Notes under the pieces: generated by a model
Database searches by the model: none
What the model was told of the DNA's origin: nothing
What the model saw: only the letters and a program-made list of their open reading frames with translations
Shown here: piece after piece, positions 9,201 to 64,000 of the stretch
Position numbering within the stretch: position 1 is the first letter of the stretch
How the letters are laid out: each line of letters opens with the position of its first letter
Made by a program: the position numbers and the translations under genes
From: Beroe forskalii
Taxonomy: Eukaryota > Ctenophora > Nuda > Beroida > Beroidae
NCBI GenBank assembly: GCA_011033025.1
Contig: WFMF01000539.1
Location: forward strand, 1-64,000
DNA: 64,000 nt
Direction: 5' to 3'

Positions 9201-12200
9201 TCAAAAAAGGTGTTTTTTCTTCAGACTATAAAAGGAAAAAACAGCGTAGAGTCAAGGTGACCCATCTTTCCGGAGTCGTGGAGTTTTGCTTTCCTATTTT
9301 ACATTACGCTTGTTGCTTTCGATCCTGACTGACAGAGTCGGGTGCGCTTCTAACAAGTCGGCAGATCTGCTCGCAGTCAGGCTTACAATTGGTGGACTTT
9401 AGTTCGCGGCGGACTTTCAAAACCTCTGCTGGTAGTCCACTAAAGTAGTAATGTCCAACAAATATTTTTATGGTGGACTTTAGTGGAGTCCGCTGTGGAC
9501 CCAGTGAACCCTCTGCTGGTCCGCCGCGGACTAAAATCCACTAATTTTTTAGCCCACAGTCACACTGGAAAATTTTTGCAGCGGGGAGCAGACATTTCAC
9601 CTACGACAATTCACGTCACGACACTTCATCTATATTTCACTTCTGAGGTTAGGGTCTGGGTAAGAATCAAGACATTGGGTAAGGTGAGGGTCATGCTTTA
9701 GGTCAGGGCAAAGAGATGAAGTGCCGTGAGGTGAAATATTGGGCTCCTATCCAAGTTACTTGGAACTTCAATTTTTTTTGTTCGACCCCTACCATAGTGA
9801 AGCGGTACCAACCCACTCACCCCCTCTTACCACAGACATTGTTTCAGGAGCTGAAGTTCAGTGGAGTGGTACCGACCCACTCTCCCCCTTCCTACCACAG
9901 ACATTGTTTCAGGAGCTGAAGTTCAGTGGAGTGGTACCGACCCACTCTCCCCCTTCCTACCACAGACATTGTTTCAGGAGCTGAAGTTCAGTGGAGTGGT
10001 ACCGACCCACTCACCCCCTCTTACCACAGACATTGTTTCAGGAGCTGAAGTTCAGTGGAGTGGTACCCACCCATTCACCCCCTCATACCACAGACATTGT
10101 TTCAGGAGCTGAAGTTCAGTGGAGTGGTACCAACCCACTCACCTCCTCTTACCACAGACATTGTTTCAGGAGCTGAAGTTCAGTGGAGTGGTACCGACCC
10201 ACTCGTGGTACGCCCCTCTTACCACAGACATTGTTTCAGGAGCTGAAGTTCAGTGGAGTGGTACCGACCCACTCACCCCCTCTTACCACAGACATTGTTT
10301 CAGGAGCTGAAGTTCAGTGGAGTGGTACCAACCCACTCACCCCCTCTTACCACAGACATTGTTTCAGGAGCTGAAGCTCAGTGGAGTGGTATCTACCCAC
10401 TCGCCCCCTCTTACCACAGACATTGTTTCAGGAGCTGAAGTTCAGTGGAGTGGTACCGACCCACTCGCCCCCTCTTACCACAGACATTGTTTCAGGAGCT
10501 GAAGTTCAGTGGAGTGGTACCGACCCACTCACCCCCTCTTACCACAGACATTGTTTCAGGAGCTGAAGTTCAGTGGAGTGGTACCAACCCACTCACCCCT
10601 CTTACCACAGACATTGTTTCAGGAGCTGAAGTTCAGTGGAGTGGTACCAACCCACTCACCCCCCTCTTACCACAGACATTGTTTCAGGAGCTGAAGTTCA
10701 GGAGAAGTTCAGTGGAGTGGTACCAACTCACTCACCCCCCTCTTACCACAGACATTGTTTCAGGAGCTGAAGTTCAGTGGAGTGGTACCAACCCACTCAC
10801 CCCCTCTTACCACAGACATTGTTTCAGGAGCTGAAGTTCAGTGGAGTGGTACCAACCCACTCGCCCCCTCTTACCACAGACATTGTTTCAGGAGCTGAAG
10901 TTCAGTGGAGTGGTACCGACCCACTCGCCCCCTCTTACCACAGACATTGTTTCAGGAGCTGAAGTTCAGTGGAGTGGTACCGACCCACTCACCCCCTCTT
11001 ACCACAGACATTGTTTCAGGAGCTGAAGCTCAGTGGAGTGGTACCGACCCACTCGCCCCCTTCCTACCACAGACATTGTTTCAGGAGCTGAAGTTCAGTG
11101 GAGTGGTACCGACCCACTCGCCCCCCTCGTATAGGGGCTCCTACATAAAGTACAGCTACATTGTGTTGGTGGGACTGCAGAGAATCAGTAAACCCGTGTC
11201 TCTCATCAGTTTACCTATCAGGATAATAAACCTGCCTGGTTAGTGGGTGGAGGGAGTTTTTATTTTAGCTGGGGGTGGTCTCTCCTGAAGTCATAAATTA
11301 TTCTAATCGACACATAAGACTACAGAACTGCTGTGATTTGATCCGTTCATATCTCTGTTTGGTGTGTTATGAGTCTGTTTTTATAGAAATAGCATCCATG
11401 AAATGTTTTCTAATTATCAAGGAGCACAGTTTCGTTAGCTATCCTATTTATAATTATCTAAAAGCAATAGTTTTGTTGCGTATCCTTTTATTCATGTATT
11501 ACTTTATGCGGCTCAAATCGTATGAATAATTTGTTACAAATGGTTAGAAAAAAGAGCTCTATTGAGATTGCGTTCTCGTTTTCCGTAGAAGCCTTTAAGA
11601 TCTTTGCTGTGTGAAGCAGATGAAGTATTGAACATGTATTCACTATCTTAGGATATCGAATCGAGCAGGATATATACCATGCCTCAGAAATTATCAAACC
11701 CAGCCCCCCAGGCCCCATACATTGGCATTGTTAACATGCTGGTTTCTTTATCCTGAGCCTGTGTTTTTGCAGCATTCCCTAATTATAATTAAGACAGGAT
11801 GCTCGAATTTGGATGATATGCATAATAATTACGATCTGCACGAAATTTTCCTAGTTACAGTATGCGGATATGTGCTCAAAAATCAGTAGATTCTAATGAG
11901 TTCTTATAGGATTATGAACATTACGATTTACGTTATTTTGAGAAATTTACCAATTATTCGATTTTCAGATTAGGTCCCAAGATTCATGAATTTTAAGGCA
12001 GTCATATATATGACCCCTTCATTTATTTGATATTTAATTACACCACGTAAAATACACGTTATCATGCTCATTGCGATTTCACTCCGCAATGCTTTGCTGG
12101 ATATCTAACTTTGCCAAGATTTTTAAAAACTGTATCCATAATTCTCTGATTATAAGCTGAATATAACCAGTAACATGGTTATCTCTGCTCAGGTATTGGT

Positions 12201-14121
12201 CTGGTTGACGGCCCTAAAGCCACCCCTTCCCACCCGTTCGCTAAGAAAGAGGAATGCCTGAATTATGAGGACTATTTCATGGACAAAGTACAGGTACAAC
12301 TCATGCGCCTTCCCAAGGACCGAATGCTCGCTTGCACTCACTCACTTATTTTCGTGATACCAATAACTTCGAACACTGATCTGTTTTTCGGACTTTCGCG
12401 AGTGAACTTAACAATCATTTATCTCGTTCAGTCGTTGTGCTGTAAGAAGCCCAGAAGCTTTGAAGTGAAGACCAGCCTGGGATTGGTTGCCAAAGTACGG
12501 TTAACGAAGGGCGCCTACAGACTAGGAGATCCAATCGAAGTTGGCTTGGAGTTTGGTGACTTGTCGTGTGTCCAGGTTGATACTGCTAGGCTATGCTGTT
12601 TGCGCTCATCCACAGTCCCCTGATGAAGCTGCGCATCATGCGTTTACTGAGTCATGATCTCACGCTCAGAGCCTCTTTACGTAGGCTTAACAGTGTTGCG
12701 AAAGCTGACCCTGAGTCCTCGGTAGCCTAACGACTTCCGTAATCCTTCCTGACCTTCTTACCAATTATAATTTTAAGTGTTTCTTGTTATCTCTCCGTTT
12801 TAGAAGTTATTGTAAGCACGTTAAGTTGCTCTCTCTGACATTAGTTGCTGCGTGCTAGGTCCCTGACTAACTCTCTGCGTGCCAGGCACGGAGTGTGCCC
12901 AGGCAGCGTGTTATTCCACAGTCTGGGATGCCTCAACGCATACCTGCATTCCGCTAATCAGTCCCGGAAATCAGGGGAAATCACGCAAATACGCCTGGCT
13001 CTTGTCAAATGTGCGGCTTTGACCGACAATACTCCTATCTTTTCATTCAACAGTGATCAGCCCTTGCCAAATGGCAATCTCATCAAAATAAATAACTCCT
13101 AGTTCTTGGTACAGATATCAAAAATTTTGTGAGGCTGAATAAACCCTTCTACGTTTTACGTAATCACGTTTGAAATGAAAGGGTTTCAAGTTTTTACTTT
13201 TCACGCAAGAATCTCTTCTCAACATGATTGAGACGCACAACTTCATGCGCCACTTGTTGTACCTAATCGTGACAACAACTGAGACAGTTCCTATAAGTAT
13301 ATGTTAATTTCAGGTGACACTGAAGTTACAAGCCCGTGAGACCATCTCGCCTGAGAGCGAGGTGGATGAAGGTACGGAGACCCGGTGCGCGACGCACGAC
13401 AGCCGGACTATCGAATGTGTGCACACCACTGCTACTGCAGTGTCGCTACACGTGCCCCTCAACGTGGCAAACACCTTCTCTACCAACATGGTGCTGGTCA
13501 GATGGCAGGTCAGAGGGGAGGTGGTAGTCAGAGGGGGTTATGGGGGTCAGGGGTGGTTTGGAAGAGGGGGTTGGGGAAGGGTCGTTTGTTAGAGAGGTTT
13601 ATGGGGAAGGGGTGGTTGTTAGCGGGGGTTGAAGGAGGAAAGGGTGGTTAGGAAGAGGGCTGAGGGGTTTGGGGAAGGTAGACAGAGGGGGTGCAGCATA
13701 TCGAAATTTAGGTGTCAACCTCAACCTGATTACGCTATATGTGAACCATCTCTAAGAGGGGAAGTGGTGGTTGAGAGTGAAAGGTGAGTAGGTGGCTTGA
13801 GGTGGCCTGGTATCACTAGTAACTACTGCCATGCTTACGACAGCAGTAAGATAAACATCCTCTTATTCTCCTACCCGACACCTCTTTCCCTTCCAGGTTC
13901 ATTTCGACTTCGTTATCGCTCAGCTACCACGAAGTGGCGAGGTAGTTGACGCAGGGATGACGTCCGTCTCAGACAAGGGTCTTGACTGTGATTGGAGACC
14001 TCTGGAGACCCTGAACGTCTCGACGTTGTCATGGCAACTACCAATCAGAGTGGTCCCTACCCTGCCCCAGTACATATCGACTGTTGCTTGGCAACGGACT
14101 CAAACCAAGGAGAATGTGTGA
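6232..14121 (+). CDS. RGP1: RGP1 homologue, Rab6A-GEF complex partner 2 (N-terminus not found)
   Basis: RGP1 pairs with RIC1 to form the Golgi exchange factor for Rab6 and has arrestin-like folds. Exons read: 6232-6385, 11085-11238, 12193-12293, 12432-12575, 13314-13508 and 13897-14121 (stop TGA). Splice phases agree throughout. The peptide matches remembered RGP1 blocks in order: PEILFCDLVLPP, PPSYRGSYIKYSYIVLVGLQ, VRLTKGAYRLGD, ECVHTTATAVSLHVPL, VRWQVHFDFV and STLSWQLPIRVVPTLP. The join 6385/11085 aligns without gaps to human RGP1. The first arrestin-like segment and start codon were not located; they may lie upstream, hidden among the 0-6 kb repeats. The intron before exon 11085 ends in a 64-bp array that repeats the acceptor, and the intron after 13508 opens with a G-rich array. 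Confidence 0.85.
6386..7630. other. RGP1 intron; dispersed repeat, no gene
   Basis: Intronic DNA. The stretch 6645-6835, starting GTGACGTAACCAG and ending near CCTGGATACG, recurs in diverged form at about 8713-8850, so it is a dispersed repeat, possibly a retroelement fragment. A GTGACC/AACCC-rich stretch at 6840-6960 precedes AT-rich DNA. No coding frame is convincing. Confidence 0.5.
7633..7935. repeat. Three diverged tandem copies of a ~130-bp unit
   Basis: Each copy carries ACATCAGACCATTTGGTCGT (the third has GTATGG in place of ATTTGG), spaced 126-138 bp apart, followed by CATAAAT and TGAAT. The core GACCATTTGGTC is a short hairpin. The unit stops just before the ORF at 7989. Confidence 0.75.
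7989..8399 (-). CDS. Unrecognised 136-aa protein, single exon, nested in RGP1 intron
   Basis: An uninterrupted minus-strand frame of 136 codons beginning MKMKLSKTLKKVKKCFRGNK. The N-terminus is strongly basic. A middle part with REKYQPPISKVRESPLP is followed by an acidic, Glu-rich half ending in FLDFHYFDRGY. There is no signal peptide and no membrane helix. The frame is not a simple repeat, and its ordinary amino-acid composition favours a real gene over chance. It lies antisense inside the 4.7-kb RGP1 intron. I do not recognise the family. A plus-strand frame of similar length covers the same bases but looks less protein-like (many Pro and His). Transcription is not shown by the sequence. 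Confidence 0.45.
   Translation of the reverse strand: MKMKLSKTLKKVKKCFRGNKSDRVYIYDEEAEAYRRSRMARFYGAIGFMHVPRREKYQPPISKVRESPLPLASSSTSVEGEEWEVEGVEVLTLEGDLPPRTEEGEQLEPLPVIIAWEYPEEQMPVFLDFHYFDRGY
8400..9390. other. RGP1 intron, no gene; second copy of dispersed repeat
   Basis: It contains the diverged copy (about 8713-8850) of the repeat seen at 6645-6835. The rest is unremarkable intronic sequence with only short random open frames. Confidence 0.45.
9391..9542. mobile_element. Short TIR element (MITE-like), ~150 bp
   Basis: The ends are inverted copies of each other: left GGTGGACTTTAGTTCGCGGC continuing GGAC, right GTCC then GCCGCGGACTAAAATCCACT. Matching CCTCTGCTGGT segments lie just inside. 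It is too short to encode a transposase, hence non-autonomous. I cannot assign a target-site duplication. Confidence 0.55.
9790..11127 (+). repeat. 64-bp minisatellite carrying the RGP1 splice acceptor, ~20 units
   Basis: Each unit contains CTCTTACCACAGACATTG, then TTTCAG|GAGCTGAAG, then TTCAGTGGAGTGGTACC and ACCCACTCACCCCC. I count about 20 copies of TTTCAGGAGCTGAAG between 9841 and 11090. The last copy is the true acceptor and the first ~40 nt of the RGP1 exon at 11085. So the repeat unit is intron end plus exon start. Sixty-four is not a multiple of three, and reading from an upstream acceptor meets AGC TGA after two to three units. Some units are longer through small insertions, for example near 10205 and 10700. 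Confidence 0.92.
11239..12192. other. RGP1 intron, no feature
   Basis: AT-rich intronic sequence with donor GTTAGT and acceptor CTGCTCAG. No repeat or coding frame is supported. Confidence 0.6.
13509..13695 (+). repeat. G-rich degenerate repeat beginning at an RGP1 splice donor
   Basis: Immediately after exon end CAG the intron opens with GTCAGAGGGGAGGTGGTA, then GTCAGAGGGGGTTATGGG and GGTCAGGGGTGG, continuing as looser GGGGAAGGG units. The donor sequence itself appears to be the repeated word. Runs of three or more G at short spacing could form quadruplexes in the pre-mRNA. Confidence 0.6.
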
Positions 14122-15330: not shown

Positions 15331-18300
15331 ATGCCTCACCTCCTCCTCCTCCTCCTCTTCCTATTTCCTGCCTCCTCCCCTCTCCACACTCCCTACGGTT
15401 CCAAGGCACCATACCGGCTGATAGGAGGGGATATCAGGGAGTTCAAGTTCCCATGTAAACCTACTGCTTTGTACAGGTGAGAAGAGACCCGTGTCTATTT
15501 CATATGGAAAATGCTGTGAATACATATTTAGTTATCGATAATGAGAATTTTGTTATCTAAAATAAGAATTTTGAGTTTATATTATGCCATTCATATTATT
15601 TTCATTAACTTTTCTTATACACATGTGTGTGTTTCAGTTTGCACCGTCACGGGACACGAAATATCGGAGAGAAGCATGTGAAGAAGATTAACCTGCTCAT
15701 CAAGTCTCTGAAAGAGCATTACAAATCGGAGGGAGGACCCAGCCCCGAACTGTCCTGGATTCTAGGTAAGGCAGAATTATTATGCGCCACGTATTTATTT
15801 CCCTACAATTATTTCCCTAAATTACAGTTCCAAAAAACAGAGGCATACCATAGTCCAGACCAACGTCTTCCCCACCGCCCCGTACCCAGCAACCCCTTTA
15901 ACCCCATGACGTTTACTTCGCGTAACTGTCTCGGATTCTAGGTAACTCAGCATTACTAACTTGCTCGCGTAACTCAAGTAAAGCTTGTAAGCGACGCATT
16001 ACTATTTAACCCAAAGCACTTCATGGTTCAACCAATCACTGCACGCTGAATTATACAAATCTCCATACTCAACACGGTATCGGTAAAGTAGTGCTCCCCC
16101 GTAACTGATACAAATAACTACACACAATCGTGTCGTCAAAACATTTCATCTACACAAAACTAATCTCAATCCACACTAAAATTGTATGCAAGAATTATTA
16201 CACAGCAAGGCTGCCTCCTTCTTGCGACCCTTCCCAACAGATTCACACCTACACTGAGTCCTGCAGTCCCCCTCCAGAACTTTAACCTGGGTCCCTGTCT
16301 TAGTGTACCCTGAAACTCCATCCCAGTTGGTGAAAGGACACATGTTATTGCACGCCTTCATTGTGCACATTGCTTCGTCCTGTCCGGCGCATCTGCACGT
16401 GTTGCAGCCGTCGACATAACTCTCTCCTATGTTAGCATAAGCTGACTCCCCGTCTTTAATGTACGCACATGTGGTAACAGGCGATCTGGCAGCAGCAAGC
16501 GAGGTCAGGAGTAGACACGTCAGGGCACCCAACATCATAACGATCTAATACAGAAATTATTTATTAAATTAGTTGGCAAACCATATTGGTGAAAAATTAC
16601 CACTGCATAGGTACGTCGATACAAAAAGGCGGGAACCACCCGAACCAAGCCGAAACCACCAAACACTCCTGAAACTACCCGGACCCATCTGAAACCACCT
16701 GAACCAACCCGAAGCCACCAAAACTCATACTTTAGGTTTTGTTCAGGTGGTTCCAATGGAAAGCGCGCATCACAATTTGGTTACGAAGTAGGATAAGCTG
16801 ACAGTGCATTTAGACATGCTCAACATATTAACATAACTTAGTGAATTAGGACACTAAGAGTTTAAGAAAAGCGACAAAACCCGAGTGGTTGATCCTCCAA
16901 ATAACCCCCCCCCCCCCCTGGTAACAAGGTGCTCTCTGCAATCAACACTTCACGTGGCTCATCCAAGTCAGTGGGGTTATCCGGCACTCGTGATTTCTTC
17001 CACACCTCGAATAAGCAGGGTGTCTGCAGCTTGTTCGTAGAACAACAAACAACCTCACTGGGCACTGGCTGTGTAGCGATTCCTTGAACACTTAGCAATG
17101 CAAGTGTGAAAGAAAATGAGGCGGGCTAGAATGTAAAATGTATACATAATATGCGGGACATTTCCTTATGTTCGAAAAGTCACGCCACAAAATTATGTTG
17201 GTGAATACCTCAAGTCTTGCAAATGTTGCGCAATCCAACGTGTAACTCTCTGCACTGTCACGGTTTACACTTTTTCTTAGATAAAGATTAACTCCTCAAT
17301 CTCCATAGCAACCTTCCCTCTTAACCTCACTCTAACCTCTACTCTTTGTAGAGACAAACATGATTCGCGTGCGCTTACAGGGCCAGTTCGAACTACAGTG
17401 AGTACGTCTCTTATGTGCGCGGCTTTAGTTTGCGCGACGTACAGTAACAACTAACAACGCGGAGTTAGTACTCCGCGCAAACTTAAGCCGCGCACACGAA
17501 AGACGCGCAAACTGCAGTTCGAACTGTTACCGTTACGATGATATCGCGAATTAATATAAATTATGATTACCTGATTAATATTATTGTTTTTTACGATAAT
17601 CACTAAGAATATCCTTCAGATTTTGAGCACGGTCACCAGCCTGACAAGGAGTTGGTAGAAGAGGGCTACGCAGAGTTACTGGGCCAAGGTGAGCGGTTTG
17701 CAGAAGCCTTCCCCCACCTCTTTGCCCCCTCCCCTTCCTCCTCCCCCTCTTCCTCCTCCTCCTCCTCCCCCTCCTCCTCCTCCTCCTCCCCCTCCTACAA
17801 TATCGAAGTAGGCACCACATCTAAAGGTCGTTGTGCCAGCTCCGCACTCAGCTTCCTGCACGGTGCGCTGAGTTCCCACTACCATATCCTGAACGAGAGC
17901 CGAGTGCTGGATAAGGAGGATGTGGGGCGGCACTGTGGGGCGCTGTGCGGCGTCTACACGCCCCTCTCCCACCCGGACCCCTCCACCCCCGCCCTCTCCT
18001 TCCACCACGACCAGGACGCCTTACTGCGCTACTACTCCGCCTGCAGGCGCTACAAGGAGAAGGAGCGGGACAAGGCAGAGTGGATGACTGAGTCCCAGCA
18101 GTACCTGACGGGGAAGGTCATGAAACAGGTGGTGGTGAAGTTGGGGAGGAGGTTAGGGCTGGATATCTCCCCCTACGATGCAGTGACGCTCCATGTCCTG
18201 TGTTCGCTGGAAGTACTACTTCCCAGACTCACCCCACACTCCGACTTCTGTTCCTTGTTCAGGGATGAGGAGATGTACGTCACGGCTTACTACCAAGACT

Positions 18301-18791
18301 TGTTGAGATACGCAGGCAAACTCATGCCGGAAGCGGTGGACGCTAGTTGCATTCTCTGGCAGGATGCTCTGCGCTTTCTGAACAAGAGTCAGGGAGGAGT
18401 TAGTCTGAAGTTCGCTCACACTGAAACCATATTCCCGCTGCTGGAGCACGTGGGGTATCTCACTGAGCCTATGAAGGGAAGTAATCTCAGTCTGACAGAC
18501 AGACAGTTCTTCGGAGACCTGACCCCCCTGGCTAGCAACTTCTTCCTGGTTGCCATGCAATGTCCGGACTCCCAGGAAACTACCGTCCAAGCCTTCCTGA
18601 ACGAGCGACCTATCGAGCTATCCCGCTGTGGGACCCCCTGCTCTCTCAACAAGTTGCTAGAGGTCTTCCCACCCTCCGGCTGTGACTTTGTGGCAATTTG
18701 CCAGGAGACACTCCCTACTAACTATCTGATAGGGGCTGGGCTGGCGGTCATCGTGTTGGGAGAACTGGTCAGACGCCGTGTTATTATTTGA
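15331..18791 (+). CDS. MINPP1: Multiple inositol polyphosphate phosphatase, MINPP1-like (copy 1, complete)
   Basis: Histidine phosphatase that removes phosphates from InsP6 and lower inositol polyphosphates in the secretory pathway. Three exons join in phase: 15331-15476, 15638-15765 and 17620-18791, giving 481 residues (human MINPP1 is about 487). Residues 1-16 are a signal peptide (MPHLLLLLLFLFPASS). The catalytic RHGTR sits at residues 52-56 in exon 2. ELLGQGERFAEAFPHLF and TSKGRCASSALSF are family blocks. The proton-donor motif HAE appears as HTE (358-360) in SLKFAHTETIFPLL. A Ser/Pro run coded by TCC repeats (about residues 126-150) is an insertion. The C-terminus has a hydrophobic segment (YLIGAGLAVIVLGEL) and RRR instead of the ER-retrieval SDEL, suggesting a membrane-anchored enzyme. 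An in-frame stop lies just upstream of exon 3 in the intron, so exon 3 needs splicing here. Confidence 0.9.
16176..16538 (-). CDS. Secreted two-domain pacifastin/VWC-like Cys-rich protein
   Basis: A 120-residue single-exon frame nested antisense in MINPP1 intron 2. Residues 1-17 form a signal peptide (MMLGALTCLLLTSLAAA). The mature part has two six-cysteine modules: C24, C45, C48, C50, C58, C63 and C67, C92, C96, C98, C113, C117. Module one contains DGCNTCRC then CTMKAC, close to the pacifastin pattern of CNxCxC followed by CTxxxC. Module two is looser (GDCRTQCRC). Pacifastin domains are small serine-protease inhibitors of the extracellular space, so inhibition of a protease is plausible but inferred; a VWC-like binding module is the alternative. 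A 5' non-coding exon is possible (AG precedes the ATG by a few bases). The second copy of this region does not contain the gene. Confidence 0.72.
   Translation of the reverse strand: MMLGALTCLLLTSLAAARSPVTTCAYIKDGESAYANIGESYVDGCNTCRCAGQDEAMCTMKACNNMCPFTNWDGVSGYTKTGTQVKVLEGDCRTQCRCESVGKGRKKEAALLCNNSCIQF
16621..16757. repeat. Dispersed GGTTTCGGGTGG-type degenerate repeat
   Basis: Degenerate units around GAACCACCCGAACC and GAAACCACC alternate over 140 bp. The same family occurs at 45.36-45.88 kb, directly upstream of the second MINPP1 copy. It therefore marks the left edge of the duplicated block in both copies. Confidence 0.6.
16764..17619. other. Intronic DNA shared with the second copy
   Basis: Aligns with about 46020-46856. 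It includes a poly-C run near 16908 and a palindromic GC-rich stretch near 17400-17520, where GCGCGCAAACTTAAGCCG-type words occur in both orientations. No gene is seen. Confidence 0.55.
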
Positions 18792-19837
18792 CCGTGTCTC
18801 AACAAGATGAATATCTAAAAGTCAATTTGATTATTCTGAAGCTTTTTGATATAATGAAATAAATAATGGGGTCATCCATAAAGGACGTCCACAAAATTTT
18901 GTCCATTTTAGACCCTTCCAATTCCATCCCCCTTGTCCGAAAACATCCGAAATCCACTTTATAACTATAAGCCAATGAACCGTATCAGTACGTACTTTTT
19001 GATCCTGGTGAAAAGTACGTATGGGGAAATTCATAAATTATATTGCTAAACTTGGAAAAAGACGGAACATGCGGCCTAAAACAACGTATGTGACAAATTC
19101 TAGAACTCTGCAGAAGACTTTTAGGGCATGATTCACGTGCAAATGTGTGCTACAATAATGATCGAATCTCCACAAGAAATTATGATTATTCAAAAAATGA
19201 TTTGTACTAGTACGTACTTGAGGCCCAGTACTTCTATGAGAAGATGAGAAGTTCTCATCTTAGCCCCCCACCTCATTGCGTTTGCAGCAGTCTTTATTTC
19301 TTGAAGGCCCCTATTGTGGCTTAATTTTAGAAATTAGAAAAAGATTAATCATTAAGTTTGGTACAATTACAAAATCCATCACAATCATGCAGACCAACTT
19401 AGTTAAACTTAATTGGAATTGGATTGTTTGTATATTTCGAGTTGATACCTTAACAGTAAAGGGACGGTTGTATGGCAAAAATGCCCGCACACACCTAAAC
19501 CATTATGTGGAGAAGCCATTTTTAAAGCTAGAGTTCTGGTTTTTTCAGTAGCTTAGGTTTTGCCTATCTAGTACACGACAAAATTAAAATCATTTCTGTG
19601 GATTAATTAATTTCTTAATGAGAGCTAATTCAATTGAGGAGGGTGTAAAAATGATACCCGGAATCTGCTGTATGGCAAATTTGCCCGACACGGCTAGGAT
19701 GATGTAACTCAATTATCCTGCGATCTATGGAAGAGAGGTGTTTATGTAAACAAATTAAGCTTTCCGTCTAATTGCTCTTCAAAGAATTCGCGGTAATCGA
19801 GGGTGTGTAGTGTGTACCTATGGTGTTTCATGTTTTA
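18792..19837. other. MINPP1 3' flank, shared with second copy up to about 19450
   Basis: Matches 47996-48730 with small changes. It includes an inverted pair, GTACGTACTTTTTGATCC and GGTGAAAAGTACGTAT. From about 19450 it has no counterpart in copy 2. No gene is supported. Confidence 0.55.
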
Positions 19838-20624: not shown

Positions 20625-21014
20625 TATATGTTTGTGTGTAGAGAAAGATATCTCTTGTTACACAAAATGTGAGACTGTGAGATCGAGACAATGTCCGTGC
20701 GCTGAAGGTGCCTGCAGCTCGACGGATAAATCCTAAAAATTGCAAAGTTGCAATCAACTGCAAACTGCGACTTTAAATTGAAAACATAAATTATTAGACC
20801 TGCTCGAGCGTACTTAGGAATTTACATGAGCGAACCGAATTATGGGCAGACATAATTGTGGGCGCTCGAAGGTATAGTTGAAAAAGTCAGAAATTTTGAC
20901 ACAATTATGATTATGGGCGTGATCAGGCATCATTCATCAGTCTCTTTTAGCAAATTTTTAACTCACCCGTTAACCATAAACATGTTACAGAAACGTGGAC
21001 CATACTTGAGTGGT

Positions 21015-42028: not shown

Positions 42029-42030
42029 TA

Positions 42031-45880: not shown

Positions 45881-46019
45881 GGTGTCGTTCCGGTTAATTG
45901 TCGAGATTTAAAAACAAATTGGACGAAATTTTGTGACAAATGAGCAACTCGGTAGTAAGCTGTAAGCAATTCCTAATATGCCGTTTAGTCTGAGGCACGC
46001 CTTTCACTTTGGTTAATAA

Positions 46020-54125: not shown

Positions 54126-55637
54126 AATCCACATTCGGACGTCGTGGTGTTTGCGCTCTTGACAAAAGGGCTACGCACCATTAACACGCCAGCTCTTCAT
54201 TATCTAAATCTCCGTGACGTCCTCATGGCGCGCACTGAGTGCGCCGTCTTTATGTGGAAACACCACGTTAGGGTTGTTGTATTTTGTTAGGCGTTGTTGG
54301 GGTCATTCGCGCGCGCGATACACGGCTCGACATTATTTAATCTGTGAAAAATTTGAAATAATGGGTCTGACGACGTCAGACAAGCTGTAACACCGTTACG
54401 CTGTTGTAACATCGTTACGCTGCTGTTACACTTTCGGTCTGAAACTGATTCATGTTTTCGTTGCGCGCGCGAGCGGGGCCAGGCAACGTCTGGCAATATT
54501 TTCGCGTTGGATAATAAGAGATAATCAAACATAAGCCTAAGCCCGCATAGGTGTGCGTACGCGCGCAGGGATGAGGGGTATGCGTTTTACTTTTCTGCTA
54601 CCGCTAGGGTTTCCTAAGCCTCCATATCCCTATGGGAGCGTAGGAATGTTATTGGATGCATATTCTGTGCAAGAAAAGTTATTTATTTTAGCTATAATTT
54701 AACAAGAAATGACGGTTGAAAAATAATGTCTTTACTCATTCGCTCGAAAATTGTCAATCGTGATGTACAAATGATGAAACCTCTATTAACTATCGAATTC
54801 CTGGTATAACATACAAGAAAGTTGTCTTGTGAGATAAAATTACAATAATTGTTAAAAAGCTGCAGTTGACAACATTTACATAAGAATATCTTAGTTCCTT
54901 TATGTTACAGTATAATGATAAATCCAAGAACAAATGCAAATTTAACATTTTCCTATATCTTTTCACAGAACCTGTTACTGTTAGACGTCAGTGTTAAAAT
55001 AAATATACGGACAATTTTATGGCATTATCATTATTATCACTCATAGCTGGTGCAAGTGTAACAGTACAAAATACAGAGTTATTTTCATGGTATTAATGGT
55101 AGGTCAAATTGTATCTTTCACAGTTGATGGAATTCCTCTTAATCGAAATATCGATGCAAGATCACTTCATTATCTATAGCGTAACATCTTGACACGATGA
55201 GAAAAAGTATTCTACATTACCCAGCAAGACATCTTTCAACATGCAATTGTACATCTTCAAAATACAAATAAACTCCTTTGACTGTCGTCACTTTTTTGAT
55301 AAACAATCGTCTACACCGTTTTGGTATTCATATACAGCGAAGGGTAAATTCTTTACTCATGCATTCTGCTATTGGAGGTTGTTTCTCAGGTGGGTAGATT
55401 CCAATAAGTTACCCACTGTCTCACTTTCATTATACAATGTCTCAAGGACTGACCATGTCTCAAGGACGGATAATATCTCAAGGACTGACCATGTCTCAAG
55501 GACGGATCATGTCTCAAGAACCGATGATAAAGTCTTGTTTTTAAAGAACCACTTTCTGAACTAAATGCACCGCGCATTAGTGATTGTCACCGCACAGATT
55601 ACCACAGATTACAGACTATATACAGACTCAGCAGCCC
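54126..55637. other. Intergenic DNA, copy 2
   Basis: From 54430 it matches 26.17 kb onward of copy 1. It includes the empty site of the 1.14-kb TIR element near 55158-55172 and the shortened 18-bp repeat at 55437-55525. No gene. Confidence 0.6.
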
Positions 55638-58600
55638 TCAGACAGTCAGTCGGCTGGGCAAGTAGCTGGACTTAGTGCCGAGGATGGGCGCCGTGGTGTC
55701 TGGGAAGTGTCCTGACGCAGTCCCCGGGGCTATCTCCCCGTGCTTGTTGATCTTTATGGGGTAGGGGAGCAGGTGGCCCGGGGTGTTCTCTGGCTGCCTG
55801 CCAAGGGAATATGGTGAGGGAAAAGTAAAACAGAAATAAAGTTATTTCCTTGCTGTACGGCATGCTAAGGAATTGTAACTGTGAGGTTCCGTACAGACCA
55901 ATCTATTGTGACGAGCCCACGTGGAAATAGCCACTATAAAGATTCCCTCGATACAACAGAGGATATAAGACGTCCTACTCCCTGATTGACTCACTTGTTT
56001 TCGATGTAAGCCTCCCAGTTCCTGGCAGCTAGTTCCCTGACCCTCTGCACGCATTCCAAAGAGGAGGGGTTATCAAACACAGGCTCGTACTGGCCCAGGT
56101 GCTCACTCCACAGCCCCTTCCTTAGACCCTGCACATGTCCGTCGCTCACTAGGCGGCTGTCTGGTTCCGCCTCCCAACACCCCACAGCTACCTCAGTGTC
56201 TCGTCTGCCGTCCATGCTCCGCTGGTTGATGTTTGCACTGCCAACTATCGCGTAGATGTCATCCGTCACCATAGCCTGCGGTTAGAGGGAATTGGAAATA
56301 TCCGCCATTTCAACTTCAAGTAGACGTTATGCTCTTCAGGTTAGGAACCGACCGGTTAACCGAACCGAAAAACCGGTTTACCGGGGGCTTCAGCCAACTG
56401 AAACCGGATATATTCAGAAATGATAACCAGTCGTTTACTGCTTCGGGTTGTCTACCTAAGATTGGTACTTGTGAATCCAATAAATCCTACCTTGCTGTGC
56501 ACGTAAATCATCCCTCGACCGTGTTTGGACATGTTAGCTGCTGGAGTGTCACTGGTTTGCAGCTTGAGAATGCTCTCTGGGGGCTGCTCACGCTTACCTG
56601 GTGCCAGAATCAGTAGTCAATAACCAACAAAGTGGAATAGTAAGATGAGAATGTCCATGAAGGCTCGGGAAAAGATGAAATGAAGTTGACAGTGCACAAT
56701 GTGGCATCAGTTGATGAGGATTTCACTGATACTTTCAGTCTGCAAGCAGCCTCTTCTCCTACCTAAACAGAAGAAGTTGAGGTAATCACAGGGGTGAGCT
56801 TCCACTTCGTATTTCTTGATAGCTTTAGCCACTTTACGGTACATCATGGACATGGTTTTAGTCTGCCAGAACAGTATTTCCTGGATGTGGGGCGCCGTAG
56901 GGTCGCCTGAAAACATGACGTCATGAAAAACGATGATTGATGACGTCATCATCATATTTTAGATAGGAGACTTGATTACGTCATCATCATAATTTAGAAA
57001 GGAGCTTCATGACGTGATTATCATACTTGATGACACGTAAACAGTAAACAGTGAAAACACCTGAGTAAGAGTGAATTTAAAGGGTAATACCTTCAGGGAA
57101 GAGAGGGATGAGGATTACCTTCAGGGAAGAGAGGGATGAGGATGTAGACTGCAAAGCGTTTTCCCTTCTCTATCTGCTCACAGATCTGCTCTGCAATCTC
57201 CACTGGTACCAAGTGGTTGCAACGAGGTGCTGAAATAGCCAAAACTTTAGTCATGGTCAAAAGAATAACCACCAGCAATAAACTCAGTCAAAATATAACA
57301 CTGGACAACAATTATCTGCATTCAATTGGACAAATACCAAATAGGATAACACAAGAAATAACACTAGAAATAAATATAATGCTGAAGAGTAGCTTACTGT
57401 GGTACCAGCTGAAGGGTTTTAGGAACTTCACGTCCTTCAGGTAGTTCTGCATAACGTCCAGCTGGTGACCTGAAGCAACTTGATAAAACCTTTACTTTCA
57501 TCATTCATGACTGGAGGATTCTTTAGAGCCCTTCCTACTATTATAGAGGGACAGTAAAAACCTATCGTCTAAAATTACCCAATCCAAGGTTTTATGATCA
57601 TGAGTTAGTTGTTTGTCTGTTATACCATGCATATATATATATGTACTTTAGAGGCGTAAGACGAACACGCAGACAATATAGAGCCCTGCGAGGCAGGCTC
57701 TATATATTTAAATGTCGACAGCGTAGCTGGAACATATAAATAATTTGGGGAGTGCGAGGCGAAGCAAGAAGCTGAGCCGAGTGCTCTAAATCATATTCTG
57801 CGGTGAGTCTGAAGGCCTCTACAACTACTAATGATCGAACGATTGTACAAAGACACACCCTGTACACAACAAGCACACATTACCTTATATGGTAATAATA
57901 GAAAATGCTTGTTAACACAAAACAAAAAAGCGCATAACTCAGCCGTTTTTGAGCAATTTTGATCAAACTTTCAGGATATTACGGGCAAGATATGACCAAT
58001 ACATTCCTTGAGTAGCTAACATTTCTGACCCTCAGAAATTGAGATATGACAGATAAACCGGTGTTTTGTTTTAAAGTTACCGCTTAACAACTGGCTTTTC
58101 GGTCATAACTCCGTTTCTGGAGCTCAAAAATGAATCTAAACTTCACTGAGATGTTGCTTTTATGAAGCTCTAAATATCCTGAAAGTTTCATCAAGTTTGC
58201 TCAAAAACCTCGGAGATATGCACATTTTGTAACATAAAAAGCAAAAGGTCGCGTAGATGTGTATTTAAATTGGTGTGTCATAACAAACACATGATATAAA
58301 GCGCGAGTAGAACAAGACTCTACGCATATAGTACTATAGAACTATTAACCGAAGTAGAGGTAAGTAACATGATATATGTTGCGAGCGCCAGCGAGCGACA
58401 TATATATGCATTATTGTACGAGGCGAAGCCGAGTTCAATAATGTGTTTTGTACGAGGCGAAGCCGAGTTCAAAACTAGATGTTACTTATCTACTGAGGTT
58501 AAGGTAAATATATATGAAACCACTCATAAAACATGGTTAAAACATGGAAAATAATGGTCTTTCGATAGGAGCTGCAGACTTCCGGAAGCTTAAAGAGCCA

Positions 58601-61600
58601 TTGGTAATCTTATTCACAGGGCTGATTACATTTAGTTTTTAAAGTATCGAATACTCAAATATGCAGTACAGAATTTACAGGCCGAATGAAAATGAATTAC
58701 ACCGGATTATAGTTAGATGTTTAGATAATTCGTTCATCTTCATGTGTTGAACCGGTAACTTAATGAAGCGATACCCTTTTCCTCTTCACCTGAACATCAT
58801 GGTAATTCTTAAAATTCCATCAGAATTAGCCTGGGCTATCACATACCTTATTGTAGGAAATTAAGCACTCAGAAAATTAAGCACCAATGCCTCGAAAAGG
58901 GCTTAATTTCATGGTGCTTAGTGACGTGCTGGCTTAATTTTTGTATACCTTTATTTTCAAATAATTTTGAGATTTTCAACATCAAAAATTTCGATATTTT
59001 GCAATGGAAGTCCAGAATCTAAATAATAATTTAATGATGAATTGAAAATAATGGAATAATCAAACATCCTTGTCGTATGGCCTCCATCTCGTCTTCAGCT
59101 TCCACAAAGTCTTCTTTCTATCCTCCTAGTCATCGTTATCATTTTGTTTCCTGTCCATATAACATCAAAAACTTAGCCTTTTCTTCAACTGGTTGTTCAA
59201 GTTTGACCTGACTCTTCGTCTACAGCCCTCCTTGTGTGATTGGTGACCAGAACTGTTCTTCAGTCAGAACTTTAATCCGTTTTAGATGACAGATGCACAT
59301 TAAAACTTCCATGTCATTTGAATAAATTTTGAAATATTCAAACTAAGCCTACATGCAATTTGGCACACATGTAATCAAGCCTACATGCAATTTAGCACCA
59401 GATGTCTCAAAAGGGCCTAATTTCATGGTGCTTAATGACATGTAGGCTTAATTTTCTGAGTGCTTTATTTCCTACAATAAGGTATAAGGGAGCTTGGTCG
59501 GTACTTTGAATTCGCTACTTATACGCATGATAATGACGCTATAAGAGTCTACCGCTAATTTGTTTGGCAGAAAGTTTTAACATTCTAATTGTGGTTCATG
59601 ATTCATCTCGAATCTCGATTCCCGAGTACAGAGTCATGTCAAACCGTGATACCGATAAATTGTAAGCGGATGAACAGTATGTGTTTCAATCGCCGTTTGC
59701 TATCATGAATTTCGTTAAGACTGATTTAGAGCACCTAATTTTTGACTCCTCTGACTTTGAGAAGCTCTAATTGCTGTTGCGACGAATGTGATTATGCAGC
59801 CAAGATTAAGATTGTTCAATTGATAAAATTTACTCTTAATGTCGTTGGGTTATTCGGTCGATCTGGACTAATAACCCGTCTCGAGACTCAATATAAGGGT
59901 TATTAACCTGGATCAGGTTAGTAACCCTTCAATACCATGTACATGATAGCAAATAAGGGCTTGGGAGCCATATAATATATTAGTATTCGACAGCATTGAG
60001 ATGCATATTGATGCATATTTGACGAGGCGAAGCCGAGTTTCATACACAATATGCATTGAAACGATATTATCTAATATTAGTAGGTGAGCAGAAAGATAGT
60101 AGTGCATAAGCATGCATAATATGCATGGGAAAAGTTAGCGAACCTACTAATACCCTTTAAATCGGTCAAAACTTGTCGTGAGACTACTATATATGTGTAT
60201 GAGTATGCTCTGGTTATATCAGCAAGCCCACCACTGATACAACAGTAAAAAATGCCGGAAAAAAGAAGTAGCTATTCACCATCATGCGCCCTTGACAACG
60301 TTAATAAATGAATAAGCCAAGAACCCTTCTAATTACATGAGTAAGATATAACGAATATAGCAGTTAGCAGATCAATTAATAGTGTACCACTCATGCGGTC
60401 AAGAGACAGGCACTATCTATTTAGCCCTCACTATTTATCCCTCACCATTTCAATTACTTATTACAAGTCTCATGAGTTATAGATAGTTAATTCTGATCAA
60501 GCACATTCTAAAATCAAGTAAATTAATCATTCAGGCCTGTCAATAACTACTAGATTCAGCGAAAATTGTTAATTTTAGTTTTACAGCATTTCATGATATA
60601 TGCACGATCATCAATAGCAATTACTGCTCCGATGAATCTATCACCAACCAAATCACAGTCAGCATTAAATGCTTCATTCCGTATCCCAGATGGTATGATT
60701 CACTTCACATGGATCAGGGCAATGTAATTTGAATTAGTACATGCGCGCGAGAAATAGGCGGTTCAACTTCATCGATAAGACAAAGTAATATCTGTCGGGG
60801 ATGCATCTGTGAGGGATGGATCTGTGGGGGATGGATCTGTGAGGGATGGATCTATGAGGGATGGATCTGTGGGGGATGGATCTTTGGGGGATGGATCTGC
60901 GGGGATGGTTCTGTGGGGCATGGATCTTTCGAGATGGATCTGTGTGGGATGGACATGTGGGGGTGGATCTGTGGGGGATGGATCTGTGGGGGATGTTTCT
61001 GTGGGGGATGGTTTTGTGGGAGATGGATCTGTGTGGGATGGATCTGTGGGGGATGGATCTGTGGGGGATGGATCTGTGGAGGATGGATCTGTGGGGGATG
61101 GATCTGTGGGGGAGGGATCTGTGGGGGATGAATCTGTGGGCGATGGATCTGTGTGTGATGGATCTGTGGGGGAGGGATCTGTGGGGGATGGATCTGTGGG
61201 GGATGAATCTGTGGGAGATAGATCTGTGGGGGATGGGTCTGTGGGGGATGCATCTGTGGGGGATGGATTTGAGAGGGATGGATTTGTGGGGGATGGATCT
61301 GTGGGGGATGAATCTGTGGGGGATGGATCTGTGGGCGATGGATCTGTGGGGGATGGATCTGTGGGAGATGGATCTGTGGGGGATGGATCTGTGAGGGATG
61401 GTTCTGTGTGTGATGGATCTGTGGGGGATGGATCTGTGGGGCATGGATCTGTGGGGGATGGATCTGTGTGTGATGGATCTGTGGGGGATGGATCTGTGGA
61501 GGATGGATCTGTGGGGGATGGATCTGTGGAGGATGGACCTGTGGGGCATGGATCTGTGAGGGATGGATCTGTGGGGGATGGATCTGTGGGGGATGGATCT

Positions 61601-63707
61601 GTGGGGGATGGATCTGTGGGGGATGGTTCTGTGTGTGATGGATCTGTGGGAGATGGATCTGTGGGGGATGGATCTGTGAGGGATGGTTCTGTGTGTGATG
61701 GATCTGTGGGGGATGGATCTGTGGGGCATGGATCTGTGGGGGATGGATCTGTGTGTGATGGATCTGTGGGGGATGGATCTGTGGAGGATGGATCTGTGGG
61801 GGATGGATCTGTGGAGGATGGACCTGTGGGGCATGGATCTGTGAGGGATGGATCTGTGGGGGATGGATCTGTGGGGGATGGATCTGTGTAGGATGGATCT
61901 GTGGGGGATGGATCTGAGGGGGATGGATCTGTGGGGGATGGATCTGTGAGGGTTGGTTCTGTGGGGGATGGATCTGTGGGGGATGGATCTGTGGGGAATG
62001 GATCTGTGGGGGATGGATCTGTGGGGGATGGATCTGTGGGGGATTCTCTGTGGGGGATGGATTTGGTGGGTATTTCAATTGAAAGTCCACCGCCTATCTA
62101 TCTCGCGCAGCAATCACAATAACACTGTAAAATCACTGACTTTGCACGCCCCTTACTCTCAGTGAACATGTCCAGGGGGGATGTAGAGTAATTACTGGGA
62201 AATGGTTTCACGTGGTCTGGCGGCATTCCTCTAGCAAACCTATCTGCGTTATAGAATTGAACGGTGGAAAATTCTATCTTAATCGGTCAAGTTTATTTTC
62301 AAGTGGTAAACTTTATTTTCAATATAGTCAACTTTATTCTACCGACCAGTGGATATCCTTAACATGTCCTGTCATACTTCACGTCATGTAATTATAAGTC
62401 TTGACTGTAATCTTCAAGATTATAGATTCAATTTTCAATAAAGTAAATTCGTGAAGTGAAAGATATTTTGATTGAAAAACTAAAAAAAGAGATGTAAAAA
62501 TTCTGAACTCTGTGAATGTGAATATTATTAAATTTCCCTGTGTGAACTGCGAATGAAATGGTACAAATCAATAACTTACTTTCTATCTCCTCATCAGATG
62601 AATCTTCTTGTGTTGGGGTGAAGTAGTAAGCTGGAAGGAGTGAATGTGATGATCATGAAACGTGAACGATTGTGAAATGTGACTTGAAGTAAAACCCAGT
62701 CTTCAGTTTGATATTCGGATATTATCAAAACTTCATATTGGGGCATAATGGGGCTTACGCTTTGAAAGTTTCAGGGTATAGGACACTACAGGCTACGGCA
62801 CAGGACTCTAGGGCACTGGACTTTACGGCACAGGACACTACGGTACAGGATTCGTGGCACACTTTTCAGTTTTGGGGGGACGCTGCAGCACACTTTGGTT
62901 TTAGGGTGGACTCTGCGGCACATAAAATTCAAGTACCACTAATAAAAGGAATATCTCCTATAAACAGCAACTTAGCCGTAGGGTCCAGTGCCCTAGAGTC
63001 CTGTGCCGTAGTGTCCGAACTCCAGTTTTCATTAAGGCCATGGTTGTATTGAACCAACCGTTTTTGCATTTATTCGATTTATGGGTGGCCAAATATCAAA
63101 TAGACTAAGAATTTCTATCGGGTTTCCGCTCTGAAATAAAATCTCAACTTGTGTATAAGGTTTTGAAAATGATTTGCAATGATGGGAAATGAAGAGCAGC
63201 ATTTGTTAACTATATTGACTCACATTCATCCAGGCTAATGTCATGATATTGTTTTGGTGAAGATGTGATGAATTGGTCATCTCTGAAGATTTTGTGATCT
63301 CTGTGCAGGCGGTTTATGGTTGCTGAGAAGAAATGGCGATCAAAGAAGATGAGGGAGATTGGGAAAATGGGAAAATGTGATTAGAGAGTCACTTAAAATA
63401 GTCAGTCAAGAGTAATAAAAGTGATATCATGGGATGTGAAAATAAAAGTAGGTTAACTATGAGACCAGTAAGAAAAATCATCAGTGAAAGAAGTACTAAG
63501 TATGATAAGAATAATCCACTAAATTGATTACCATCTTAGTTACACTGCCTAGCCCACAGGAGCTAATAATCAGTACTCACTTCCTTTCTCGTACCACGTG
63601 TGGGCACTGCCTAAGAAGTACTGGTTCTCGATGTAGATGAAGCTGTCAGAGTTACGGACTGCCCTCACGTAGGCTCTGTGAATGCTCGCCTCGTACGTTC
63701 TGCCGTG
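55638..63707 (-). CDS. Plant-type phospholipase D, copy 2 (cut by window edge)
   Basis: Nine exons are readable and collinear with copy 1: 63581-63707, 63224-63322, 62580-62630, 57398-57469, 57119-57229, 56763-56906, 56491-56597, 55995-56275 and 55638-55797 (stop). All have the same lengths and phases as in copy 1, so the frame is intact. The second catalytic motif HSKAMVTD with IVGSANINQRSMDG is present; exons with the first HKD lie beyond the window. Most differences from copy 1 are silent; exceptions include S to I (DEESE to DEEIE) and P to T at a splice junction. The donor of the exon at 57119 is duplicated. One intron is about 2.5 kb longer than in copy 1. Either a recent paralogue or the other haplotype of copy 1. 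Confidence 0.9.
56339..56450. repeat. ~110-bp insertion in PLD copy 2 intron
   Basis: Present between matching flanks (CTCTTCAGGTT and GGTTGTCTACC) of copy 2 and absent from copy 1. It carries AACCGGTT-type inverted words (CCGGTTAACCGAACCG, AAACCGGTTTACCGGG). Confidence 0.6.
57091..57146 (-). repeat. 28-bp tandem duplication of exon end and splice donor in PLD copy 2
   Basis: On the sense strand, ATCCTCATCCCTCTCTTCCC then TGAAG|GTA occurs twice, 28 bp apart. Copy 1 (29986) has it once. The first donor keeps the protein in frame. Using the second would read PEGNPHPSLP and then a stop. Confidence 0.9.
57920..58240. mobile_element. Foldback element with ~60-bp arms
   Basis: The left arm runs through GCATAACTCAGCCGTTTTTG and ATCAAACTTTCAGGATATT. 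The right arm reads AATATCCTGAAAGTTTCATC and CTCAAAAACCTCGGAGATAT. The arms are imperfect (about 80 percent by eye) with roughly 200 bp between them. Confidence 0.65.
58846..59482. mobile_element. CCTTA-ended TIR element, 637 bp, TA target site
   Basis: The ends CCTTATTGTAGGAAATTAAG and its inverted counterpart match over about 38 bp with one mismatch; TA flanks both. The interior repeats TTAAGCAC and GCTTAATTT words in both orientations, including GGGCTTAATTTCATGGTGCT and a related GGGCCTAATTTCATGGTGCT. No transposase. Confidence 0.8.
60741..62110. mobile_element. TIR-bounded unit with 15-bp minisatellite (copy 2)
   Basis: Left end GCGCGCGAGAAATAGGCGG and right end CCGCCTATCTATCTCGCGC. The 15-bp repeat GGATCTGTGGGGGAT fills 60795-62060, about 85 units against about 30 in copy 1. 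A block of about 240 bp recurs within it (compare 61380-61560 with 61675-61850), showing higher-order duplication. All six frames give long repetitive open frames because 15 is a multiple of three; these are not genes. Confidence 0.85.
62781..63022. repeat. Foldback element in PLD intron (copy 2)
   Basis: Counterpart of the element at 32408-32632, with an additional GGACTTTACGGCACAGGACA segment. The arms GGACTCTAGGGCACTGGAC and GTCCAGTGCCCTAGAGTCC are perfect. Confidence 0.7.
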
Positions 63708-63715
63708 CTGAGGTG

Positions 63716-64000
63716 GGGAGGGGGGTTAGCAGAGAAGGGGGAGGGGTTAGCAGGGGAAGGGGGGTTAGCAGAGGGAGGGGGTTAGCAGAGGGGGGGGAGG
63801 TGGTTAGCAGAGGGGGAGGGGGGCAGAGAGAGGGGGGAGGGGGTTAGCAGATGGAGAGGGGTTAGCAGAGGAGGGGGGTAACAGAGGGGGGGGGGGTTAG
63901 CAGAGGAGGAGGGGGTTAGCAGGGGGAGGGGGGTTAGCAGATGGAGGGGGGTTAGCAGAGGGGGAGGGGGGTTAGCAGAGGGGGGTTAGCAGAGGGGAGG
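63716..64000 (-). repeat. CTAAC/polypyrimidine minisatellite at PLD acceptor (copy 2, runs off window)
   Basis: Same position and unit type as 33331-33985, next to the acceptor of exon 63581-63707, with a different order of variants (units with AGATGGAGGGG and AGCAGGGGGAGG). It continues past the right edge. Confidence 0.85.

What the first reader, a model, noticed from the sequence alone, without database searches (positions are those of the whole stretch)
9790..64000. Tandem repeats built on splice junctions: a recurring local process
At six places in two genes the tandem repeat touches or contains a working splice signal: RGP1 acceptor (64 bp x ~20), RGP1 donor (G-rich), PLD donor (30 bp x ~34), PLD acceptor with exon start (132 bp x 2), PLD branch-point/pyrimidine tract (~19 bp x ~33, both copies) and PLD donor (28 bp x 2, copy 2 only). 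This is more than I would expect from random placement, since exons occupy a small share of the locus. One explanation is selective: a duplicated splice signal leaves one usable site, so such arrays are tolerated, while arrays inside exons are purged. Another is mutational: AGGT and pyrimidine tracts may promote slippage or R-loop breaks. Tandem duplication around AGGT is an established route to new introns, and these arrays look like that process caught in stages.
Basis: partly seen in the sequence, partly recalled or inferred. Interest (0 to 1): 0.88.

Follow-up and report, generated by a model that had tools for sequence, protein, structure and literature searches.

The report
Splice-junction minisatellites in a ctenophore
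In this animal genome, apparently a comb jelly, the DNA at some exon-intron borders has been copied head-to-tail, in places dozens of times, so that one real splice site sits beside many intact copies of itself, a pattern known from amphioxus as 'mirages'.

Summary
The observation largely holds and reaches beyond the window. The genome looks like a ctenophore's (best hits Mnemiopsis leidyi, 67-69% identity). Spliced alignment shows that the RGP1 array (64 bp x ~20) repeats 42 nt of exon start plus 22 nt of intron end, and the PLD donor array (30 bp x 35) repeats 9 nt of exon end plus 21 nt of intron. The 132-bp and 28-bp PLD duplications also span junctions. The pyrimidine/branch-point arrays only abut an acceptor; the G-rich RGP1 donor repeat is weak. 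The pattern recurs elsewhere in the genome: 11 of 195 kinesin edges and 3 of 40 kinase edges (window genes 4 of 67). It matches amphioxus 'mirages'. Per base, junctions are hit less often than intron interiors (5% against 19%). Per array, with random founding units, there is a modest excess (14 of 64 against 7.8, P=0.009), confined to arrays of five or more copies (cut-off chosen after seeing the data). AGGT is not enriched, splice dinucleotides in copies are neither specially kept nor lost, and four or five kinesin arrays lie in introns shared with paralogues. Recurrent tandem duplication at junctions is supported; AGGT-driven breakage and intron birth are not. RNA data are missing.

The parts
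9796..11125 (+). RGP1 acceptor array: 64-bp unit x ~20; unit = 22 nt intron 3' end + 42 nt exon start; the last copy is the real exon start
   Evidence: TRF, spliced alignment with Mnemiopsis RGP1 P0121, unit analysis: AG intact in 19 of 19 other copies
11085..11238 (+). RGP1 exon whose first 41-42 nt are the array unit
   Evidence: spliced alignment; Mnemiopsis protein reads KELKFSGIVPTHSPPSYRGS there
6232..14118 (+). RGP1 gene, exons 6232-6385, 11085-11238, 12193-12293, 12432-12575, 13314-13508, 13897-14118 (first exon(s) not settled)
   Evidence: spliced alignment, score 1346, no frameshift event
13496..13611 (+). G-rich imperfect repeats at and after the RGP1 donor at 13508/13509 (weak)
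   Evidence: TRF scores 40 and 73
35185..36225 (-). PLD copy-1 donor array: 30-bp unit x 35; unit = 9 nt exon end + 21 nt intron
   Evidence: TRF; copy 2 has the same donor with no array; GT intact in 30 of 33 other copies
36217..36356 (-). PLD copy-1 exon between the duplicated acceptor and the donor array
   Evidence: spliced alignment with P0001
36297..36509 (-). PLD copy-1 acceptor plus exon start duplicated (132-bp shift, two copies)
   Evidence: alignment of the two copies
33343..33982 (-). PLD copy-1 pyrimidine/branch-point-like array near the acceptor of exon 33202-33328 (no exon bases)
   Evidence: TRF; exon by spliced alignment
57088..57143 (-). PLD copy-2 donor duplication, 28 bp x 2 (25 nt exon + GTA), exon 57119-57229
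   Evidence: TRF 100% match, sequence, exon
63715..64000 (-). PLD copy-2 pyrimidine/branch-point-like array (continues to about 64302) abutting the acceptor of exon 63581-63707
   Evidence: TRF, spliced alignment
16761..44530 (.). segmental duplication, copy 1 (carries PLD copy 1, aligned exons 28559-38896)
   Evidence: self-BLAST, spliced alignment
46018..64000 (.). segmental duplication, copy 2 (continues to 71940; PLD copy 2, aligned exons 55641-68794)
   Evidence: self-BLAST, spliced alignment

Best explanation
These are 'mirage' minisatellites. A short segment that happens to straddle an exon-intron border is tandemly duplicated by an ordinary process (slippage or unequal exchange; inferred). 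Because the copy touching the exon body is still intact and, by inference, is the one paired across the short exon (exon definition), the spliced mRNA is unchanged. The other copies lie in the intron with their splice signals and exon fragments and drift and expand there like any intronic minisatellite. Shown: unit anatomy, in-place origin from the exon, recurrence in several genes, presence in one and absence in the other of two paralogues, intact extra splice sites, strong constraint on the encoded protein. Inferred: use of the outer site, neutrality, the duplication mechanism.
For: Units contain coding sequence that continues into the real exon: RGP1, PLD, kinesin loci L068 and L053 and L073m. 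17 of 302 edges carry a junction-spanning copy at the 5/4-nt rule (14 of 262; 3 of 40), 18 with the 5/3-nt rule; 0 of 5240 single-nucleotide shuffles reach score 40 (maximum 25). The copies are competent by consensus: acceptor AG intact in 117 of 118 copies of seven arrays, donor GT in 56 of 63 copies of four arrays. Splice dinucleotides are no more and no less conserved than neighbouring column pairs (combined P 0.88 for five acceptor arrays, 0.95 for three donor arrays). PLD copy 1 has the 35-copy donor array and copy 2 none, yet 1 of 471 codons differs in amino acid against 36 of 196 fourfold sites (ten equal-length exons). Arrays below five copies (units of 15 bp or more) are placed as random founding predicts (5 of 38 against 3.8).
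Against: No RNA data, so use of the outer copy is unproven. High-copy arrays exceed the random expectation at junctions (9 of 18 against 3.7, P=0.0008), which plain neutrality does not predict, though the five-copy cut-off was chosen after seeing the data and arrays cluster by gene (two of the nine are in locus L063 and a third, L073m, on the same contig C897). In L049 none of 25 copies reaches the real acceptor's score, a possible sign of selection for the outer site. PLD copy 1 is degenerate at its 5' end (frameshifts at about 37500 and 37951, C2-domain exons not found), so that copy may not be fully functional despite the conserved catalytic part.
Confidence: 0.75

Rival explanations
1. A junction-directed mutational process (R-loops, stalled or co-transcriptional splicing, or splice-signal sequence itself) breaks or re-replicates DNA at splice sites and drives expansion there.
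For: Excess of junction-spanning arrays overall (14 of 64 against 7.8, P=0.009) and among arrays of five or more copies and units of 15 bp or more (9 of 18 against 3.7; worst leave-one-locus-out P=0.0125); arrays spanning or within 20 bp 24 of 64 against 14.4 (P=0.001). Both donors and acceptors, several gene families.
Against: Arrays below five copies show no excess (5 of 38 against 3.8), so initiation is not junction-biased; AGGT not enriched; per base, junctions are below intron interiors; without PLD copy 2 and L063 the overall P is 0.03.
Confidence: 0.25
2. Selection keeps the arrays, because many splice sites strengthen or tune splicing (for example by U1 or U2AF recruitment).
For: In most of the eleven arrays scored, many copies have sites as strong as the real one.
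Against: Splice dinucleotides are not more conserved than neighbouring columns; the donor array is absent from a paralogue that keeps the same protein; in L049 no copy matches the real site.
Confidence: 0.08
3. The arrays are stages of intron birth by tandem duplication around AGGT.
For: Tandem duplication of exon sequence is a documented route to introns (PMC3443670 passages; PMC4974935 abstract); a mirage-based model of intron gain was proposed for amphioxus globins (PMC3087553 passages).
Against: The arrays lie in existing introns; four kinesin array introns share position with a paralogue and a fifth; no AGGT excess; no unit shown to be spliced as a new exon or intron.
Confidence: 0.07
4. 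The placement is chance only: introns are short (median 245 bp) and units long, so many random tandem duplications must overlap an edge.
For: Expected 7.8 of 64 by chance alone; window genes alone 3 of 29 against 1.75, P=0.25; kinesins alone 8 of 31 against 5.0, P=0.08.
Against: Combined P=0.009, and stronger for high-copy arrays.
Confidence: 0.35

Closest known systems
Mirages of amphioxus (Adh3, Canestro et al. 2002, cited as B68 in PMC3087553; globins BflGb6 and BflGb9; troponin C and PGBD5 per PMC3902484)
   Same: minisatellite-like tandem duplications spanning exon-intron boundaries, at both 5' and 3' borders, with AG/GT signals in many copies
   Different: apparently a ctenophore rather than a cephalochordate; up to 46 copies counting the real one (L073m) against 3 and 6 repeats in the two BflGb6 haplotypes; counted units here 24-132 bp; present at about 6% of 302 edges sampled; amphioxus has RT-PCR evidence of normal splicing (PMC3087553), absent here
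Human internal tandem repeats at exon-intron boundaries in segmental duplications (PMC2812944, passages)
   Same: variable minisatellites at exon-intron boundaries of duplicated genes
   Different: there tied to new introns with transcript evidence in recent primate paralogues; here arrays lie in existing introns and no transcript was seen
[quoted passage not shown] potato RdRp, PMC4974935 abstract)
   Same: tandem duplication across an intron-exon boundary supplies extra splice signals
   Different: no new intron is shown here
Human IFI6 (6-16) minisatellite providing several splice donors (recalled; one search did not list a paper on it)
   Same: tandem repeat made of splice-donor sequence at a real donor
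   Different: from memory only; single human gene

Membership tests
Mirage minisatellite | tandem repeat unit spans an exon-intron boundary | tested here: met
   junction-spanning copies at 17 of 302 edges (5/4-nt rule) or 18 (5/3-nt rule); unit anatomy; L052 and L055 are two diverged copies rather than arrays
Mirage minisatellite | occurs at both donor and acceptor borders | tested here: met
   6 donors and 9 acceptors in the 262-edge set; 1 donor and 2 acceptors in kinases
Mirage minisatellite | copies carry splice signals | tested here: met
   AG in 117 of 118 copies of seven acceptor arrays, GT in 56 of 63 copies of four donor arrays
Mirage minisatellite | regular mRNA splicing is not disturbed | not testable with these tools
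   no transcripts held; indirect: PLD copies differ by 1 amino acid in 471 codons
Mirage minisatellite | length instability between alleles or cells | tested here: inconclusive
   array present in one PLD paralogue, absent in the other; no population or read data
Mirage minisatellite | found in cephalochordates (if the name is restricted to that lineage) | tested here: not met
   best relatives of two genes are Mnemiopsis leidyi proteins
Intron gain by tandem duplication | intron absent at that position in relatives | tested here: not met
   four kinesin array introns share position with a paralogue, a fifth; the other array introns are not resolved; phase not checked
Intron gain by tandem duplication | duplicated AGGT supplies both splice sites | tested here: not met
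   AGGT not enriched at duplicated junctions

The most novel reading that the evidence does not exclude
In this ctenophore, splice junctions are preferred places for minisatellite expansion: initial duplications fall at random, but arrays that contain a splice junction expand to high copy number more often, through some coupling of splicing or transcription to repeat growth. Thousands of genes would then carry arrays of their own splice sites and rely on exon definition to pick the outermost.
Probability: 0.25. Interest if true: 0.85.

Novelty: new member of a known kind. Interest (0 to 1): 0.6.

Why it matters
Mirages were described in amphioxus and thought possibly general there (PMC3087553 passages). 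Finding them at about 6% of sampled splice edges in an apparent ctenophore, with dozens of intact competing splice sites, suggests the phenomenon is not confined to cephalochordates. It offers natural tests of how the spliceosome chooses one site among many identical ones (exon against intron definition), and of how often junction duplications feed intron or exon gain. The two PLD copies, one with and one without the donor array, are a ready comparison.

Tried and rejected
Per-base enrichment of arrays at junctions was tested and rejected. AGGT as a driver was rejected. Special conservation or decay of splice dinucleotides in array copies was looked for and not found. That PLD copy 1 is a plain pseudogene was considered: its catalytic exons are strongly constrained, although its 5' part is degenerate. 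A mobile-satellite origin of the RGP1 unit was checked: the only other contig reported is C717 (the tool scores only its best candidates), where a 67%-identical copy of the sequence after the array also lies, so it looks like a duplicate of the locus; I could not read C717.

Rows dropped. Kinase loci L025, L033, L035 and L081 were aligned but left out because the alignment gave no clear intron chain; six kinase stretches were fetched and five used. Dropped before the 262-edge count: L040 and L071 (weak or tandem-exon loci), inner pseudo-exons of L063 and L049 that lay inside the arrays (removed by hand), and L044 alone (joined to L073); edges with identical 24-base context counted once. For the array counts L064, L059 and L050 were dropped as repeats of L047, L048 and L054; for the final count the second TRF row of the L049 array was dropped, and the five kinase arrays were entered by hand. 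Not counted as spanning in the TRF-based test although junction copies exist: the 132-bp PLD acceptor, L041 acceptor, L052, L055, and the 19-bp L044 donor array. L052 and L055 are weak members (two diverged copies), and L067 has only 4-7 exon nt. The five-copy cut-off was not pre-specified. The DEAD-helicase search was not used.

Full report
What the locus is. The window is contig C624:1-64000 of a 216-Mb genome in 1134 contigs. The best relatives of its two main genes are Mnemiopsis leidyi proteins: a C2-type phospholipase D (P0001, 67% identity over the query) and RGP1 (P0121, 69%). It is therefore most likely a ctenophore; no rRNA or species name was checked. A segmental duplication puts two PLD copies in the contig: 16761-44530 and 46018-71940.

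Exon edges. I wrote a protein-to-genome spliced aligner and used the Mnemiopsis proteins to set exon borders: RGP1 exons 6232-6385, 11085-11238, 12193-12293, 12432-12575, 13314-13508, 13897-14118 (+); PLD copy 1 from 28559-28715 up to about 38896 (-); PLD copy 2 from 55641-55797 to 68653-68794 (-). All splice statements rest on these alignments, not on RNA.

The arrays contain the junctions. In RGP1 the 64-bp unit is 22 nt of intron end (CCTACCACAGACATTGTTTCAG) plus 42 nt of exon start. The exon part reads ELKFSGVVPTHSPP, and Mnemiopsis RGP1 has KELKFSGIVPTHSPP, so the last unit is the true exon and about 19 further copies of acceptor plus exon start lie upstream in the intron. In PLD copy 1 the 30-bp unit is TTCTACCAG|GTACATTTAGTGGGGATACCA: nine exon nt and 21 intron nt, 35 copies. 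In copy 2 the same donor is followed by an ordinary short intron. The PLD acceptor with about 65 nt of exon start is duplicated in both copies, spacing 132 bp in copy 1 and 137 bp in copy 2; in copy 1 the reading frame from the upstream acceptor to the exon is open (36151-36612). The copy-2 donor at exon 57119-57229 is duplicated exactly (28 bp). The pyrimidine/CTGCTAAC arrays lie beside an acceptor but hold no exon bases, and the G-rich repeats at the RGP1 donor are weak.

Beyond the window. Kinesin motor loci (family search) aligned to kinesins of the same genome gave 195 edges in 33 loci, some loci being parts of one gene; 11 carry junction-spanning copies. Examples, with copies besides the real one: L049 acceptor (58 bp, 25), L073m acceptor (56 bp, 45), L068 acceptor (39 bp, 9), L063 donor (45 bp, 19) and acceptor (30 bp, 14), L053 donor (28-36 bp, 9), and L048 donor (43 bp x 2). 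L068 repeats the codons GGNSMTLM and L053 the codons SKLTRLLQ, which I recall as kinesin motifs (sequence). Six kinase stretches, fetched after this pattern was seen and chosen for having split domain hits, gave five usable loci with 40 edges, of which 3 are spanned (L077 acceptor, L079 acceptor, L079 donor). Window genes: 4 of 67, one of them only by the 3-nt rule. The total is 17 of 302 by the 5/4-nt rule, 18 by the 5/3-nt rule. A longer probe also shows the copy-2 PLD acceptor.

Is it more than chance? Three answers. (a) Against random sequence, yes: in 20 single-nucleotide shuffles of the intron side of all 262 edges none of 5240 reached score 40 (maximum 25), while 14 of 262 real ones did. 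(b) Against intron interiors, no: 1043 of 5528 interior points (18.9%; mean per intron 10.7%) have such copies, against 5.3% of junctions; exon interiors 25 of 2722 (0.9%). Interior points were searched on both sides, junctions on the intron side only. (c) Per array, assuming that each array began as one unit dropped at random in its own intron, 14 of 64 span a junction against 7.8 expected, P=0.009; 24 of 64 span or lie within 20 bp against 14.4, P=0.001. The excess is in arrays of at least five copies and 15-bp units (9 of 18 against 3.7, P=0.0008; worst leave-one-locus-out P=0.0125) and absent below five copies (5 of 38 against 3.8). Without PLD copy 2 and L063, 11 of 47 against 6.5, P=0.03. 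By subset: window genes 3 of 29 against 1.75 (P=0.25), kinesins 8 of 31 against 5.0 (P=0.08), kinases 3 of 5 against about 1.1 (summed). The P values treat arrays as independent; the two PLD copies and the loci on contig C897 are not.

Mechanism. AGGT at the junction does not raise the chance of an array (donors 5 of 6 against 72 of 125, P=0.40; acceptors 3 of 9 against 44 of 122, P=1.0). Within eight arrays the splice dinucleotide columns are no more and no less conserved than other column pairs, so there is no clear sign that inner sites are selected for or against; most remain intact (117 of 118 AG, 56 of 63 GT). One exception to note is L049, where no copy reaches the real acceptor's score (0 of 25). 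PLD copies differ by 1 amino acid in 471 codons of ten equal-length exons but at 36 of 196 fourfold sites, so the catalytic part stayed under strong constraint while one copy carries 35 donor units and the other none; two further exons differ in length and the 5' part of copy 1 is degenerate. The simplest account is random tandem duplication, tolerance because the exon-adjacent copy is used (exon definition; inferred), and drift of copy number.

Intron birth. Kinesin array introns at L063 (both), L073m and L053 sit at positions shared with paralogues on other contigs, and L068 shares its position with an L073m intron by the alignments (phase not checked). The other kinesin array introns showed no shared position or could not be placed. 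At least these four or five are older than their arrays, so they are not introns in the making.

Known kind. [quoted passage not shown] PMC3902484 passage; the original Adh paper is not held). Human internal repeats at exon-intron boundaries (PMC2812944 passages) and intron gain by tandem duplication (PMC3443670 passages; PMC4974935 abstract) are neighbours. My searches for ctenophore cases (20 of 27 listed, none found) and for junction-spanning repeats (12 of 32 listed, 15 of 57, 20 of 43) listed no title about such arrays in a ctenophore; of the papers only passages of PMC8527503 were opened. Subscription papers are mostly not held.

Limits. The sample is kinesins, five kinase loci and three window genes, so the 6% rate should not be taken as genome-wide.

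Noticed in passing
G000 contig C717:9373-10818 and 8447-9009 (not fetched): A second copy of the RGP1 array (pieces at 73-92% identity, one 34-base piece 100%) lies beside a 67%-identical copy of the sequence after it; parts of the array are more alike than the flank.
   Followed up: partly
23677-25680 and 49440-54112: 19-bp arrays (about 106 and 245 copies, TTACGCTGCTGTAACAGCG type) at matching places of the two duplication copies, differing more than twofold in length.
   Followed up: no
492-888 and 5391-6076: The same 51-bp unit forms two arrays about 5 kb apart.
   Followed up: no
G000 C291:171201-174881 (L071): Repeated hits to the same kinesin model positions (221-264 three times, 263/266-300 four times) 0.8-2 kb apart suggest tandem exon duplication; alignment of L071 was weak.
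   Followed up: partly
31251-31694 and 60790-62062: 15-bp GGATCTGTGGGGGAT-type arrays in the same PLD intron of both copies, about 30 against 85 copies, open in several frames.
   Followed up: no
17728-17796 and 46962-47000: CCT-rich coding microsatellite differing in length between two copies of an exon matching Pfam His_Phos_2.
   Followed up: no
11298-11366: A stretch of about 60 bp has 45 further short matches listed in the genome (dispersed repeat).
   Followed up: no
16176-16544 (-): Open frame with a Pacifastin_I match just under the curated cut-off.
   Followed up: no
37500-38896 (-): PLD copy 1 has frameshift events and lacks recognisable C2-domain exons present in copy 2.
   Followed up: partly
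L044:2180-3054 (G000 C897): A 19-bp x 47 array begins at the end of a kinesin exon alignment and may be one more donor array; not counted because the exon end was not settled.
   Followed up: partly
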